From Akkermansiaceae bacterium (GTDB lineage: Bacteria; Verrucomicrobiota; Verrucomicrobiia; Verrucomicrobiales; Akkermansiaceae), in contig CAJIZY010000003.1 of the NCBI GenBank assembly GCA_905181965.1, positions 1 through 64,000 of the forward strand: 64,000 bases of DNA, written 5' to 3'. The position numbers were made by a program, and so were the translations under genes. The first letter of the stretch is position 1. Each line of letters opens with the position of its first letter. Shown in pieces: positions 36,741 to 46,644 of the stretch. The notes under the pieces are model-generated. The model did not search any database. It saw only the letters and a list, made by a program, of their open reading frames with translations, and was not told where the DNA came from.

Positions 36741-37184
36741 ATGAAACCTCTCTGGCTTGCCATCTTCGCCTCTCTTCTGTTGGCGTCATGCTCCAGCTAC
36801 CAGCGAGAGTTTAAAGCATCTACAACCGAGTTTCGCTCAGCCAAGCTCAAGACCACTCCCACCGGCCCTTGGAAAGGAACCTGGAAAAGCGAAGTCAACG
36901 GGCATCATGGTCCGCTCTGGTGTATGATTACAAGGGATGAGGCCTCACCCGAAACCTACAACTTCCGCTACCGTGCTGGTTGGGGCTTACTGCAATTCGG
37001 CGATTATACCCACCCCATCACAACCACACAGGAAGATGGAGCCCTTTCCTTGAACCACTCAATGGCTTTGCCCAACAACTTCGGCACCTATCGTATCAAA
37101 GGACGAGTCGGCCCGACACAATTTGAGTGTCGCTTCCAAGGCAATAGTGACAAAGGAACAATGGTCCTTCAGCGCCCCCACTAG
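36741..37184 (+). CDS. Lipoprotein of unknown function
   Basis: 147 residues from the ATG at 36741, four bases after the hemQ stop. Signal peptide with lipobox LLASC (C17). The mature part has a WKGTWKSEVNGHHGPLW strand pattern and a RYRAGWGLLQFGDYT segment, repeated later as YRIKGRVGPTQFECRF; this looks like a small beta-barrel such as a lipocalin-like fold. Its stop overlaps the stop of the convergent gene at 37181-37184 (CTAG). Confidence 0.75.
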   Translation: MKPLWLAIFASLLLASCSSYQREFKASTTEFRSAKLKTTPTGPWKGTWKSEVNGHHGPLWCMITRDEASPETYNFRYRAGWGLLQFGDYTHPITTTQEDGALSLNHSMALPNNFGTYRIKGRVGPTQFECRFQGNSDKGTMVLQRPH

Positions 37185-38248
37185 CTGTAATACGGCTCGA
37201 CTGCGACGAGGCCGGGTGCTGCATCCCTTGCTTCCCGGGAAGGGAAAAGGTAGAGCGCGTAACCACCATGGCCACCCCCGCAATATTTCCGAGCCACGCT
37301 GCCTAGAATTTCAGGCAACTCTTCCATGCCCTCTTCCAACTGGGCGGAATAAGACATCAAAACCGCCTCAGCTAGCTTGGCAACCGACTCGGCCATCACG
37401 GCCTCTCGAGCTACGGCTCCCGCGCGCTCAATCAAATCGTAATCCCGTTCAAAACCCACCGAACCCGGCGTATCGTGTTGCTTTCTAGTCCAGAGCAAAC
37501 CCATGCATCCAGCCAGAAACGATCCATCTCGTTTCAAATCCAGCCTCGGCCTTTCGCCACTCTTCCAGACACAAATCCCAGTTTCTCGGATCACTGCTGG
37601 ATCCTGCCAACCTACGCCCAAATCTAGCTCGGACTGCACCGAATCTTTGCCATTCAACAAGGCCCAAGCTCCGCTCCCCCCCAGCCCCGCCTTCTGCTCA
37701 TAGGGCCAATCGTGCAAACTTACTTTCGGTGAAATCGCGCAGTTCACAATAAAACCGCCCTTCCGAGCATACTTCGGCACATCCAGCCAGCCACCACCAA
37801 AGTCAACACGCAGAGGAGCCTCCGCCACCCCACCAATCCGATTTACAATAGCGGTCGTCGAAATTGGCTCAAACTTTGGAGGAGTCTTCGGAAGGCGGAC
37901 ATACCGACAACCCAATTCCTCACACAGTCTCTCTTTGATTGCCCCATATTGATCGTCCTCCGTAACCGCCAAAATATCCGGCTTAAGCTCGCGAAAAACT
38001 GGCTCAAAATCCAAGCCCTGTCGTTCTCCATTCCCAGCAACTACGCGGTCTACCATCACCAGAGACCGCAAAAGCTCCACCTTATGATCATCCGGTAACG
38101 AAGGCCTTCGCCCCTTATGCTTCCATAAAATATCCTCATTTGCGAACGAAACTGTCAAGTGATCACCCAAAGCCCGGGCCTCCTCAAAAAACTGTAAATG
38201 CCCCGCATGTAGAATATCATAACAACCTGAAACAAATACCTTCGCCAT
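37181..38248 (-). CDS. Fusion of a cytidylyltransferase-type nucleotidyltransferase and a GHMP-type sugar kinase
   Basis: 355 residues. Residues 1-140 form a HIGH-type nucleotidyltransferase (GCYDILHAGHLQFFEEA, H14 and H17; ISTTAIVNRI at 129-138). Residues 144-355 resemble HddA/L-fucokinase GHMP kinases: APLRVDFGGGWLDV, a glycine-rich GLGGSGAW (188-195), QDPAV (215-219) and CGGGHGGYAL (323-332). The kinase part, ~210 residues, is much shorter than the usual 320-350. The likely job is to phosphorylate a sugar at C1 and make an NDP-sugar, by analogy with HldE and FKP; the sugar is unknown. The two-domain order differs from HldE (kinase first). Confidence 0.8.
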   Translation of the reverse strand: MAKVFVSGCYDILHAGHLQFFEEARALGDHLTVSFANEDILWKHKGRRPSLPDDHKVELLRSLVMVDRVVAGNGERQGLDFEPVFRELKPDILAVTEDDQYGAIKERLCEELGCRYVRLPKTPPKFEPISTTAIVNRIGGVAEAPLRVDFGGGWLDVPKYARKGGFIVNCAISPKVSLHDWPYEQKAGLGGSGAWALLNGKDSVQSELDLGVGWQDPAVIRETGICVWKSGERPRLDLKRDGSFLAGCMGLLWTRKQHDTPGSVGFERDYDLIERAGAVAREAVMAESVAKLAEAVLMSYSAQLEEGMEELPEILGSVARKYCGGGHGGYALYLFPSREARDAAPGLVAVEPYYS

Positions 38249-38314: not shown

Positions 38315-39935
38315 ATGAAGCTTTTCCTTCTTCTCCTATTCCCCTTCACCGCCCTCGCAGAGAAAAAGCGGCCCAATATCGTCTTTTTCTTCACCGATGA
38401 CCATGCTCCTCACGCCATAGGCGCTTATAATGGCTGGCTCAAATCGGTAAACCCAACCCCCGAAATCGACAAGCTTGCCGACGACGGCATGCTCTTTGAG
38501 AATTCCTTCTGCACAAACTCCATTTGCGGGCCCTCTCGCGCCGTCATCATGAGCGGAAAGCACAGCCATAAAAATGGCTTCATGAACAACGGAAACTCCT
38601 TTGATTGGAACCAACAAATCTTCCCGAAAATTCTCCGAGCCGCCGGGTATCACACTGCCCTTTACGGCAAATCCCACCTCAAGGGAAAACCTCAAGGCTT
38701 CGACTCATGGGCCGTCCTTCCAGGTCAGGGCGACTATTACAACCCGGCCATGATCACGCCAAAAGGGCGAAAAATCATGAATGGCTACTGCACCGACATC
38801 GTCACTGACATGGCCATCGACTTCATCAAGGAATCCAAGGAACTCGGCAAACCCTTTATGCTTATGTGCCAGCACAAGGCCCCGCACCGCACTTGGATGC
38901 CAGCTCTGCGCCACCTTCATCTCTATGATGACATCACGATTCCCGAACCCAAAACCGCTCTTCGACCAATACGAAGGGCGCATCCCAGCCCAGCACCAGG
39001 AAATGGAAATTGATCGTCACATGTATCTCGACCACGACCTCTTCACCGACCTCACCCCAGGCCTCGACTTCCCAAAACAGCGCCTTCCAAGCCAGGATCG
39101 CTCCGCCTACCTAAACATGAAACGCATGACCCCGGAACAGCTGAAAACTTGGCGCGCCGCATACGGCCCTAAGGATAAGGCTTTCCGCGAAGCCAAACTT
39201 ACCGGTCGTGACCTCGTCCGCTGGAAGTTTCAGCGCTATGCCAAAAACTACCTCCGCGCTATCAAGGGCGTCGACGAGAACTTAGCACGCCTCCGCAAAG
39301 CGCTGGAAGACCAAGGTCTCGCTGATAACACGGTCTTCGTTTACTCTTCTGATCAAGGGTTCTATATTGGCGATCACGGTTGGTACGACAAACGTTGGAT
39401 GTACGAAGAATCTTTAAAGATGCCTCTCATTATTTCTTGGCCTGGTGTTATTAAACCCGGCTCACGCAATACCGATCTCGTTCAAAACCTCGACTACGCA
39501 CAAACCTTTCTCGAGATGGCCGGGGCAAAAACACCCAGCGACATGCAAGGCACTTCCCTCGTCCCACTGCTCAAAGGCAACAAGCCCAACGACTGGCGTA
39601 AATCCATCTACTACCACTACTACGAGTATCCTTCCTACCATCAGGTCCCCCGCCACAACGGCATCCGCACCGAACGCTACAAACTCATCAACTTTTACGA
39701 ATTTGGAGAGTGGGAATTCTACGACCTCAAAACCGACCCTGATGAGCTCAAAAACCTTTATGGTAACCCCGAGAAAAAAGAGCTTATCGACGATGTCCGC
39801 AAACAACTCCTCAAACTCCAAAAAGGCTACGGCGACGACACGGTTCTCAAAGAAAAGCCGCCGGAGTGGAAGAGCAAAATGCGAACCACCACCAGCGTGA
39901 AAACCAAAGCCAACTTCCGCCCACGCGTGAAGTAG
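38315..39935 (+). CDS. Secreted S1-family sulfatase, split by a frameshift
   Basis: Signal peptide, then [13 protein letters not shown] and the signature [19 protein letters not shown] with the formylglycine cysteine at C71. After about 38955 the frame changes: [11 protein letters not shown] continues correctly as [11 protein letters not shown] if one G at 38957 is removed. The second frame runs to 39935 with [24 protein letters not shown], typical of one sulfatase subfamily, and ends in a basic tail. Full length about 540 residues. A sulfatase that cleaves a sulfated glycan outside the cytoplasm. It is divergent from the nucleotidyltransferase-kinase gene with only 66 bp between starts. Confidence 0.88.
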
Positions 39936-43958: not shown

Positions 43959-46644
43959 ATGACTTCGGCAGAGATTCGCAACAGCTTCCTCGACTTCTTT
44001 AAGGAGAAACAGCACACCACTGTCCCCTCCGCCTCTATTCTGCCACAGTCGCCCGGACTCCTTTTTACAAACGCAGGAATGAATCAGTTTGTTCCTTACT
44101 TCCTTGGCACTGAGAAAGCTCCCTACGATCCTCCACGCGCTGCCGATACCCAGAAATGCATCCGTGCCGGCGGCAAACACAACGACCTTGAGGATGTCGG
44201 CTATGACACCTACCACCACACCTTTTTTGAAATGCTGGGGAACTGGTCCTTCGGCAACTACTTCAAAGAAGAAGCGATCGCATGGGCTTGGGAACTCGTC
44301 GTCGAACGCTGGGGACTTCCAGCCAACCGGCTCTACGCGACGGTCTACGCTCCCAGCGAAGGCGACCCTTCGGAATTTGATCATGAAGCCTACCAGCTCT
44401 GGAAAGGCTTCTTTGAAAAAGCCGGCCTCGATCCAAAGATCCACATCGTTAATGGGAACGTCGAAGACAACTTCTGGAAAATGGGAGATACCGGGCCGTG
44501 CGGCCCCTGTTCAGAACTCCATGTCGACATGACACCCAACGGCGACACCGGCGGAAAACTTGTAAATATGGATTCCGATCTCTGCATCGAGATCTGGAAC
44601 CTCGTCTTCATCCAATACAATGCTGAAGAAGACGGCACTTACCGTGACCTCCCCTCCAAACACGTCGACACTGGCATGGGGTTCGAGCGTGTCTGCTCAC
44701 TCATTCAAAATACCAAGAACTTCACTGACTTTTCCAAAAAACCCACAAACTACGCTACCGATGTCTTCCAGCCAATTTTTCGTATGCTCGAAAAACTCAG
44801 CGGCAAAAAATACGTCGACGTCTACCCCGGCGAGGAATCCGATGCCCTCGAACAAGCCATCGCTTTCAGAGTGATCGCTGACCATATCCGCACCCTCAGC
44901 TTCTCGATCGCCGATAGTATAATCCCTGGCAATACCGGACGAAACTACGTCCTTCGCCGTATCTTACGACGCGCTGTCAAATACGGCCGTACTCTCGGAT
45001 TCAATGGCAACGAACCCTTCCTCCCTAGACTCGTCGACACACTCGTCGAGGAATTCAGCCACGTCTTCCCCGAAATCAAAACCAGAGCCGCAGTCATTAA
45101 AGAAACTCTCACCCTTGAAGAAGAGTCTTTCAATAAAACCCTCGACCGGGGAATGGAAAAGTTTGAGAATTCTGTTATTGAAAACGTCTTTCCTCCGGAG
45201 GATGCCTTCCAACTCTACGACACCTTTGGCTTCCCCCTCGATCTTACCGCTCTTCTTTGTCGTGAGCGAGGCATCACTCTCGATGAAAAAGCGGTCGAAG
45301 CCCGTATGGAAGAGGCCCGCAAACTTTCCCGAGCTTCACAAAAGAAAATGGTAGTCCGTGCGACTGAGATTTCTACCGATGTTATCACCGAATTCCTCGG
45401 ATTCGAAAAAAACTCCTGCGAGGCAATCGTTCTCGAAATTCACGGCAATCTCGTCATCACCGATAAAACCGTCTTCTTCACCGAAATGGGCGGACAGGAA
45501 GGTGACACCGGAACCCTTAATGATTCCACCATCACCAGCACCCAACAGATCGGCTCCGCGATCGCTCACCAAATCGAAGGTAATATTCCTGCAGTTGGCG
45601 ACACCGTAGATCTGACAATCAATCGTGAGCGCCGTTCCTATCGAAGCTCACCACACCGCCACCCACCTCCTCCACTGGGCTATACACAAAGTCATCTCAC
45701 CCGACGCTTCCCAACAGGGGTCCAGCGTTTCGCCAGATCGCTTGACCTTTGATTTTAATTCAAAAGCGGTCACTCCAGAACAAATCGAAGCCATTGAGGA
45801 AAGAGTTAATTCCGCAATCAAAGCTGACGATACGGTTTCGTGGGTTGAAGTCCCACACTCAAAGGTGAAAGACCGCGAAGACATCATGCAGTTCTTCGGT
45901 GATAAATATGGTGACCTTGTCCGCGTTGTCCAAATAGGAGGGGGTGACAAAACTCTCGACGGTTATTCGATGGAACTCTGCGGTGGAACTCATGTCCGAA
46001 AAACTTCTGACATCGGTATCTTCAAAATTAAATCCGAAGGATCTACTGGAGCCGGAATTCGCCGCATCGAAGCCGTCTGCGGCCCCGCTGCCGAAGCCTT
46101 TCTCGGCGAACAACAAGAGAAGGAATCCGCAGAAAAATCCGAAGCCCTAGCGAAGCTAGCGAAGGCCAACGAGGCCCTTGCCAAACTTGATGCTCCCACC
46201 CTTTTGGTTCCCGATAATGCCCGAGCCTTCGAAGTGAAAAATCAGGCAATCGAAGCAGAAAAGGCCCTTAAAAAGGCCCAAGCTACTGGAGCAGCCCGCA
46301 TGGCTGACTCGCTTATTGCCGAGAAAAATATCACCGAAAACATCGTCATCTCCACTGCAGGGTCACCCGCTCTTCTTCAAGAGTTGCTGAACGGCTTGAG
46401 GAAAACCCACTTCACCCAAGCCGCCTTTATCGTAATCGACGACGGCAACAAACTCCACCTTGGCGCATTTTGCGGAGAAGAAGGAAAGAGAAATGGTCAC
46501 GGTGCCGGGACTCTCATTCAAAAACTTGGGCCCATCGCTGGAGGAAAAGGAGGGGGTAAACCTGACATGGCTCGAGGCGCCGCTTCCGACCGCGACAAAA
46601 TCAGTGAGCTCGCCACAGCTGCAAACACAGAGCTTGGACTTTAG
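43959..46644 (+). CDS. alaS: Alanyl-tRNA synthetase, split by a one-base insertion
   Basis: About 895 residues in total. N-terminal class II catalytic domain (SAEIRNSFLDFFKEKQH, LLFTNAGMNQF, GGKHNDLEDVG, NTGRNYVLRRI). Editing domain with HHTATHLLHWAIH and SMELCGGTHV (the zinc-binding His and Cys), and the C-Ala tail (GGGKPDMARGA). The first frame ends with DLTINRERRS, the second starts at SIEAHHTATH. An extra T at about 45639 shifts the frame (CGT TCC T ATC GAA). Both halves are well conserved and the enzyme is essential, so a sequence error is more likely than a real mutation. Confidence 0.96.

What the first reader, a model, noticed from the sequence alone, without database searches (positions are those of the whole stretch)
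37181..38248. Nucleotidyltransferase fused to a shortened HddA/fucokinase-like GHMP kinase
A cytidylyltransferase (HAGH) domain followed by a GHMP kinase with GLGGSGAW and CGGGHGGYAL motifs makes a two-step NDP-sugar enzyme. HldE has a PfkB kinase first and FKP has a different pyrophosphorylase, so this pairing of a HIGH-type transferase with a ~210-residue GHMP kinase appears to be a distinct solution. The kinase is ~40% shorter than usual, with an apparently missing N-terminal lobe segment.
Basis: partly seen in the sequence, partly recalled or inferred. Interest (0 to 1): 0.7.

Follow-up and report, generated by a model that had tools for sequence, protein, structure and literature searches.

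The report
Bifunctional fucose-activating enzyme, miniature kinase
This gene encodes a two-domain enzyme, widespread in Verrucomicrobiota including the gut bacterium Akkermansia, that probably phosphorylates the sugar L-fucose and then attaches it to a nucleotide for building cell-surface glycans; it does this with an unusually stripped-down kinase and a different partner domain from the known fucose-activating enzyme.

Summary
In detail: 37181-38248 (minus strand, 355 aa) is an intact fusion of a HIGH-type nucleotidyltransferase (HAGH) and a roughly 215-residue GHMP kinase lacking about 65 residues between motifs 1 and 2, plus smaller pieces. It is not a sequencing error. All but one (a broken copy) of 189 open frames holding the kinase part also hold the transferase, across Verrucomicrobiota. 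With related sequences in the alignment, the kinase part is predicted to fold as a complete small GHMP kinase (pLDDT 92.5). Its best solved match is the fucokinase part of FKP.

The substrate reading changes: L-fucose, not heptose, is favoured. The gene sits in operons with L-fucose permease, isomerase and mutarotase, or beside gmd/fcl. Fucose-binding residues of FKP are conserved. Genomes carrying it never carry FKP (0 of 78, 7 expected). Its Akkermansia muciniphila orthologue, Amuc_1591, was recently linked genetically to fucose/D-arabinose handling (PMC13313206) and proposed as a fucose-nucleotidyltransferase.

So one member is already described. Added here: the kinase reduction with surviving intermediates, phylum-wide spread, fucose operons and the replacement pattern with FKP. 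No activity is shown; the nucleotide used is unknown.

The parts
37181..38248 (-). whole gene: two-domain nucleotidyltransferase / miniature GHMP kinase, 355 aa (stop codon at 37181-37183)
   Evidence: ORF and translation; orthologues of 57-97% identity in the genus and related families
37835..38248 (-). N-terminal HIGH-type nucleotidyltransferase domain (residues 1-138)
   Evidence: Pfam PF01467 E 7.8e-12; rfaE_dom_II 63.7 bits, below its cut-off of 181.5
38198..38209 (-). HAGH nucleotide-binding motif (residues 14-17)
   Evidence: HxGH in 187 of 188 full family ORFs, the exception being truncated at its N-terminus
37184..37831 (-). C-terminal miniature GHMP kinase domain (residues 140-355)
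   Evidence: AlphaFold2 model pLDDT 92.5, pTM 0.90; best PDB match is the fucokinase part of FKP, 9iip, E 3.3e-10; profile hits
37775..37816 (-). GHMP motif 1, PLRVDFGGGWLDVP (residues 145-158); R147, W154, D156 align with fucose-binding R592, W599, D601 of FKP
   Evidence: conservation; alignment to 9iip; FKP residues from PMC11982464
37688..37717 (-). site of the ~65-residue N-lobe deletion between beta-2 and motif 2 (residues 178-187)
   Evidence: alignment with full-length HddA-type kinases and the two intermediates
37664..37687 (-). GHMP motif 2 / phosphate loop GLGGSGAW (residues 188-195)
   Evidence: motif present in 188 of 188 family ORFs
37601..37630 (-). E207 and GWQD216: candidate Mg-ligand Glu and catalytic Asp (FKP E751 and D762)
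   Evidence: GWQD in 188 of 188; E207 and D216 at least 97% conserved; FKP has E then GGGWQD with the Asp 11 residues on
37259..37288 (-). GHMP motif 3, KYCGGGHGGY (residues 321-330); includes G326, mutated to Glu in D-arabinose-resistant Akkermansia
   Evidence: alignment; PMC13313206

Best explanation
A bifunctional L-fucose-activating enzyme, a functional analogue of FKP. The C-terminal miniature GHMP kinase phosphorylates L-fucose at C1 with ATP. The N-terminal HIGH-type nucleotidyltransferase then joins fucose-1-phosphate to a nucleotide, giving NDP-L-fucose for surface glycans (exopolysaccharide, LPS). Shown here by computation: the fusion, its conservation, motif retention, the predicted GHMP fold, fucose operons, and absence of FKP from carriers. 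Shown by others in one orthologue: loss of Amuc_1591 relieves D-arabinose toxicity. Inferred: that both domains are catalytic, that L-fucose is the physiological substrate throughout the family, and that the product is GDP-fucose rather than CDP- or ADP-fucose.
For: Fold: the kinase model matches the FKP fucokinase first, 9iip E 3.3e-10, then heptokinase WcbL. Residues: FKP R592, W599, D601, D762 (PMC11982464) align with R147, W154, D156, D216, all at least 97% conserved; GGWxD and GWQD are FKP-like, where the HddA-type kinases examined mostly have GGGxD and G[KRH]QD. Operons: FucI (equivalog above cut-off) 5' of the gene in L081, L089 and L214; FucU 7-9 nt 3' in L089, L214 and L228; FucP in L214. 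In surface-polysaccharide clusters of Akkermansiaceae, gmd and fcl lie beside it in 25 and 24 of about 30 loci. Replacement: 78 carriers and 35 FKP genomes among 384 of the class, overlap 0, expected 7.1, p 2e-4 uncorrected for relatedness. Within the genus gmd accompanies it: 17/21 carriers against 1/6 non-carriers, p 0.008; the window's own genome has gmd. Genetics: all 12 D-arabinose-resistant A. muciniphila mutants hit Amuc_1591 (V176G, G326E, frameshift) and L-fucose restores growth (PMC13313206); L207 is that gene by residues 176 and 326 and its murJ neighbour, and is 61% identical to the window protein.
Against: No enzyme activity has been measured for any member. Fucose operons cover only a few lineages; many loci, including the window's own (a divergent sulfatase, chlorite dismutase-like gene, folB), carry no fucose-specific neighbour. 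HIGH-type transferases known to me use CTP or ATP for sugars and alcohols, not GTP, so GDP-fucose would be unusual. The candidate Mg-ligand Glu lies 9 rather than 11 residues before the catalytic Asp. The structure alignment included full-length HddA-type rows, which could push the model towards the GHMP fold; the shallow alignment without them folded poorly. Gmd/fcl adjacency would also fit any surface-polysaccharide gene.
Confidence: 0.68

Rival explanations
1. Transferase with a non-catalytic sugar-binding domain: the mini-GHMP part has lost kinase activity and only binds or positions fucose(-1-phosphate), or regulates the transferase.
For: About 40% of the kinase is gone, including N-lobe strands and helices; it falls below Pfam GHMP detection; the Akkermansia paper calls the protein a nucleotidyltransferase whose C-terminus binds the sugar.
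Against: Phosphate loop and catalytic Asp motif are kept in 188 of 188 members, and motif 3 in most; loss of catalysis usually relaxes these. No other fucokinase is fused or consistently adjacent. G326E, in motif 3, removes the D-arabinose effect.
Confidence: 0.15
2. Heptose-activating enzyme: HddA-like kinase plus HldE-like transferase making NDP-heptose.
For: The transferase domain scores best against HldE domain II; the kinase is HddA-related, and the intermediates match HddA as well as FKP.
Against: Both HldE scores are far below curated cut-offs (63.7 of 181.5; 48.6 of 521). No heptose-pathway gene was recognised among the recurrent neighbours; fucose genes were. FKP-type W and GWQD signature.
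Confidence: 0.06
3. D-arabinose-activating enzyme: the physiological product is an NDP-D-arabinopyranose.
For: FucI and FucU enzymes also handle D-arabinose (general knowledge); the Akkermansia orthologue mediates D-arabinose toxicity.
Against: D-arabinose is toxic and L-fucose relieves it in Akkermansia; neighbours are the L-fucose permease, isomerase and mutarotase equivalogs plus gmd/fcl.
Confidence: 0.06

Closest known systems
Amuc_1591 of Akkermansia muciniphila (putative fucose-nucleotidyltransferase, PMC13313206)
   Same: Same two domains in the same order, 61% identity over the whole length; V176 and G326 conserved.
   Different: The window species is a different Akkermansiaceae genus with a different neighbourhood (not murJ). 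In the passages read, the paper does not report the kinase deletions, the intermediates, the phylum-wide spread or exclusion with FKP.
FKP, bifunctional L-fucokinase / GDP-fucose pyrophosphorylase (Bacteroides fragilis; PRK13412)
   Same: Two-step fucose activation proposed; C-terminal GHMP kinase; fucose-binding and catalytic residues conserved; best fold match.
   Different: FKP has an N-terminal Fucose_pyrophosphorylase domain (PF07959), unrelated to the HIGH-type domain here, and is about 950 aa against 355. NF009948 scores 18.8 against a cut-off of 721.
HldE / RfaE (heptose kinase / adenylyltransferase)
   Same: HIGH-type transferase fused to a sugar kinase.
   Different: HldE has a PfkB-type kinase placed first; here a GHMP kinase comes second. 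Scores below both curated cut-offs.
HddA / WcbL heptose kinases
   Same: Same GHMP branch; second-best fold match.
   Different: Full-length (about 340 aa), stand-alone; GGGTD and G[KR]QD instead of GGWxD and GWQD in most examined.
L141/L142 intermediates (NT + GHMP, 445-462 aa, Verrucomicrobiota)
   Same: Same domain order; share the N-lobe deletion.
   Different: Retain the helix after motif 2 and a Pfam-recognisable GHMP C-terminal domain.

Membership tests
Amuc_1591-type NT/mini-GHMP family | NT domain followed by ~215-residue GHMP part in one ~355-375 aa protein | tested here: met
Amuc_1591-type NT/mini-GHMP family | residues V176 and G326 whose mutation gives D-arabinose resistance | tested here: met
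   both conserved in the window protein
FKP (PRK13412 / NF009948) | N-terminal Fucose_pyrophosphorylase PF07959 | tested here: not met
   Pfam scan finds only CTP_transf_like; no PF07959 hit in G000
FKP (PRK13412 / NF009948) | curated score cut-off 721 bits | tested here: not met
   18.8 bits
FKP (PRK13412 / NF009948) | fucose-binding R592/W599/D601 and catalytic D762 | tested here: met
   aligned R147/W154/D156/D216
FKP (PRK13412 / NF009948) | catalytic E751, 11 residues before D762 | tested here: inconclusive
   conserved E207 lies 9 residues before D216
FKP (PRK13412 / NF009948) | fucokinase and GDP-fucose pyrophosphorylase activity | not testable with these tools
   needs an enzyme assay
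HldE | N-terminal PfkB kinase | tested here: not met
   no PfkB domain; kinase is C-terminal GHMP
HldE | curated score of domain II (181.5 bits) | tested here: not met
   63.7 bits
HddA / WcbL | full-length GHMP kinase with N- and C-terminal lobes | tested here: not met
   N-lobe segment of about 65 residues absent; no Pfam GHMP match
GHMP kinase superfamily | three motifs in order and GHMP fold | tested here: met
   motifs; profile hits; model and Foldseek, with the caveat that HddA-type rows were in the alignment

The most novel reading that the evidence does not exclude
A second, independently built fucose-activating enzyme in which an exceptionally small working GHMP sugar kinase is paired with a HIGH-type transferase that either uses GTP (which would be new, as far as I know, for a sugar-activating member of that fold) or makes a new donor, CDP- or ADP-L-fucose.
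Probability: 0.4. Interest if true: 0.72.

Novelty: new variant of a known kind. Interest (0 to 1): 0.52.

Why it matters
Fucose salvage into surface glycans is known through FKP in Bacteroides and eukaryotes. Here many Verrucomicrobiota, including Akkermansia, appear to have replaced FKP with a non-homologous transferase and a stripped kinase. If confirmed it explains how Akkermansia captures mucin fucose for its own envelope, shows how little of a GHMP kinase is needed, with surviving intermediates, and provides a 355-residue enzyme for making nucleotide-fucose in place of FKP's roughly 950. Automatic annotation misses this: the curated libraries recognise only the transferase half.

Tried and rejected
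Sequencing error or chance fusion: rejected, 188 fused ORFs in many genomes; the single lone kinase ORF (L061) is a broken copy. Kinase part as merely an NT subdomain without kinase ancestry: rejected by the profile, intermediates and fold. Shallow alignment A1 for structure: residues 124-240 below pLDDT 50, redone with A4. Viral scan for the intermediate kinase: no relatives; phage records give only the NT half at about 31% identity. Records labelled as outside Verrucomicrobiota (Porticoccaceae, Bacteroidales, Fibrobacteres, Mariniblastus) may be binning or naming problems; kinship is not told for them, so spread outside the phylum is undecided. FucU is not found over cut-off in the window's own genus.

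Full report
WHAT IS THERE. The ORF at 37181-38248 is on the minus strand and encodes 355 residues. Residues 6-136 are a CTP_transf_like nucleotidyltransferase with HAGH. Pfam finds nothing in the remaining 215 residues, and NCBIfam only a sub-threshold FKP match at motif 1. A profile of 69 diverse family members reaches solved GHMP kinases.

IT IS A CONSERVED FAMILY, NOT AN ERROR. The full fusion occurs at 57-97% identity in about 20 genomes of the genus and in two further groups, in 78 of 384 genomes of the class, and in at least 400 places in GTDB contigs, the best 80 being nearly all Verrucomicrobiota (Akkermansia, Luteolibacter, Haloferula, Coraliomargarita, Opitutaceae). Of 189 open frames with the kinase part, 188 also contain the transferase; the exception is a broken copy. 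Lengths cluster at 355-375 aa. HxGH is kept in 187 of 188 frames (the other is N-terminally truncated), and the phosphate loop and GWQD in 188 of 188. Some of these frames are the same gene fetched twice, so the counts are of loci, not species.

HOW THE KINASE WAS SHORTENED. Aligned with full-length HddA-type kinases from the same phylum, the family lacks about 65 residues between beta-2 and motif 2, about 20 after the motif-2 helix, and further short stretches in the C-terminal lobe. Two Verrucomicrobiota proteins, L141 and L142 (445 and 462 aa), have the same domain order and the first deletion only, and their C-terminal lobe is still recognised by Pfam. They look like surviving intermediates. 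That is inference from two sequences; no tree was built.

FOLD. A shallow alignment gave a poor model of the kinase half. With 115 rows, including the intermediates and 18 full-length kinases, the kinase part alone is predicted at pLDDT 92.5, pTM 0.90. The best PDB match is the fucokinase part of FKP with fucose-1-phosphate (9iip, E 3.3e-10), then WcbL. The full-length rows may bias the fold, so this shows compatibility, not proof.

ACTIVE SITE. In FKP, R592, W599 and D601 contact fucose, and E751 and D762 are essential (PMC11982464). R147, W154, D156 and D216 align with four of these and are at least 97% conserved. The fifth, E207, is conserved but two residues closer to the Asp than in FKP.

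SUBSTRATE FROM CONTEXT. In L214 the order is fucP, fucI, a small hydrolase-like gene, this gene, fucU; in L089 it is a DeoR regulator, an FGGY kinase, mqo, fucI, this gene, fucU; L081 and L228 carry part of this. FucP, FucI and FucU all exceed curated equivalog cut-offs where tested. In other Akkermansiaceae the gene lies in a surface-polysaccharide cluster with gmd (25 loci), fcl (24), a WecG/TagA-type glycosyltransferase (28), UDP-glucose dehydrogenase and sulfate-activation genes. The window's own locus has no such neighbour, but its genome has gmd on another contig.

REPLACEMENT OF FKP. Of 384 genomes in the class, 78 carry the family and 35 carry FKP (PF07959 over cut-off). None carries both; 7.1 expected, p 2e-4 without correction for relatedness. 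Only one taxonomic family contains both kinds. Within the genus, gmd accompanies the gene (17/21 against 1/6, p 0.008); several genomes are incomplete, so this is supporting rather than strong.

PUBLISHED ORTHOLOGUE. Lakey et al. 2026 (PMC13313206) found that all twelve D-arabinose-resistant A. muciniphila mutants carried mutations in Amuc_1591 (V176G, G326E, a frameshift). They modelled it as a nucleotidyltransferase plus a sugar-kinase-like domain aligned to 9IIP, found that L-fucose relieves toxicity, and proposed a fucose-nucleotidyltransferase in an operon with murJ. Locus L207 has V176 and G326 and a murJ neighbour above the curated cut-off, and is 61% identical to the window protein. 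I found this paper after reaching the fucose reading from gene context.

VERDICT. Most likely a bifunctional L-fucokinase / fucose-1-phosphate nucleotidyltransferase, working like FKP but not a member of the FKP family (its defining N-terminal domain was tested and is absent). The heptose reading is unlikely. A non-catalytic sugar-binding C-domain remains the main rival. The nucleotide used is unknown.

Noticed in passing
window 38315-39935 (+): Sulfatase gene next to and divergent from the fusion is split by a frameshift near 38955: N-terminal part in one frame, C-terminal part (SGSH_C) in another. Unbroken 538-aa sulfatase-cluster ORFs sit at the same place in close relatives (L041, L042).
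   Followed up: partly
window 43959-46644 (+): A gene read as alanyl-tRNA synthetase is also split by a frameshift near 45640. Two such breaks suggest indel errors in this assembly; the fusion gene itself is intact.
   Followed up: partly
L206 4050-5671: In one Akkermansiaceae genome (probably Akkermansia) the fused gene has a divergent transferase domain and overlaps a second, stand-alone HIGH-type transferase of 171 aa, as if the transferase had been duplicated.
   Followed up: no
L208/L209 (G150) and other genomes of genus g3: Several genomes carry two copies of the fusion: in G150 one lies at what looks like the murJ-type locus, the other beside a WecG/TagA-type glycosyltransferase. They may serve different glycans.
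   Followed up: no
L067, L073, L085, L106, L108: In Opitutales relatives the gene sits in a housekeeping run: a recJ-like gene just 5', then tyrosyl-tRNA synthetase and a probable mreB-type cell-shape cluster 3' (assigned by reading the sequences, not by profile).
   Followed up: no
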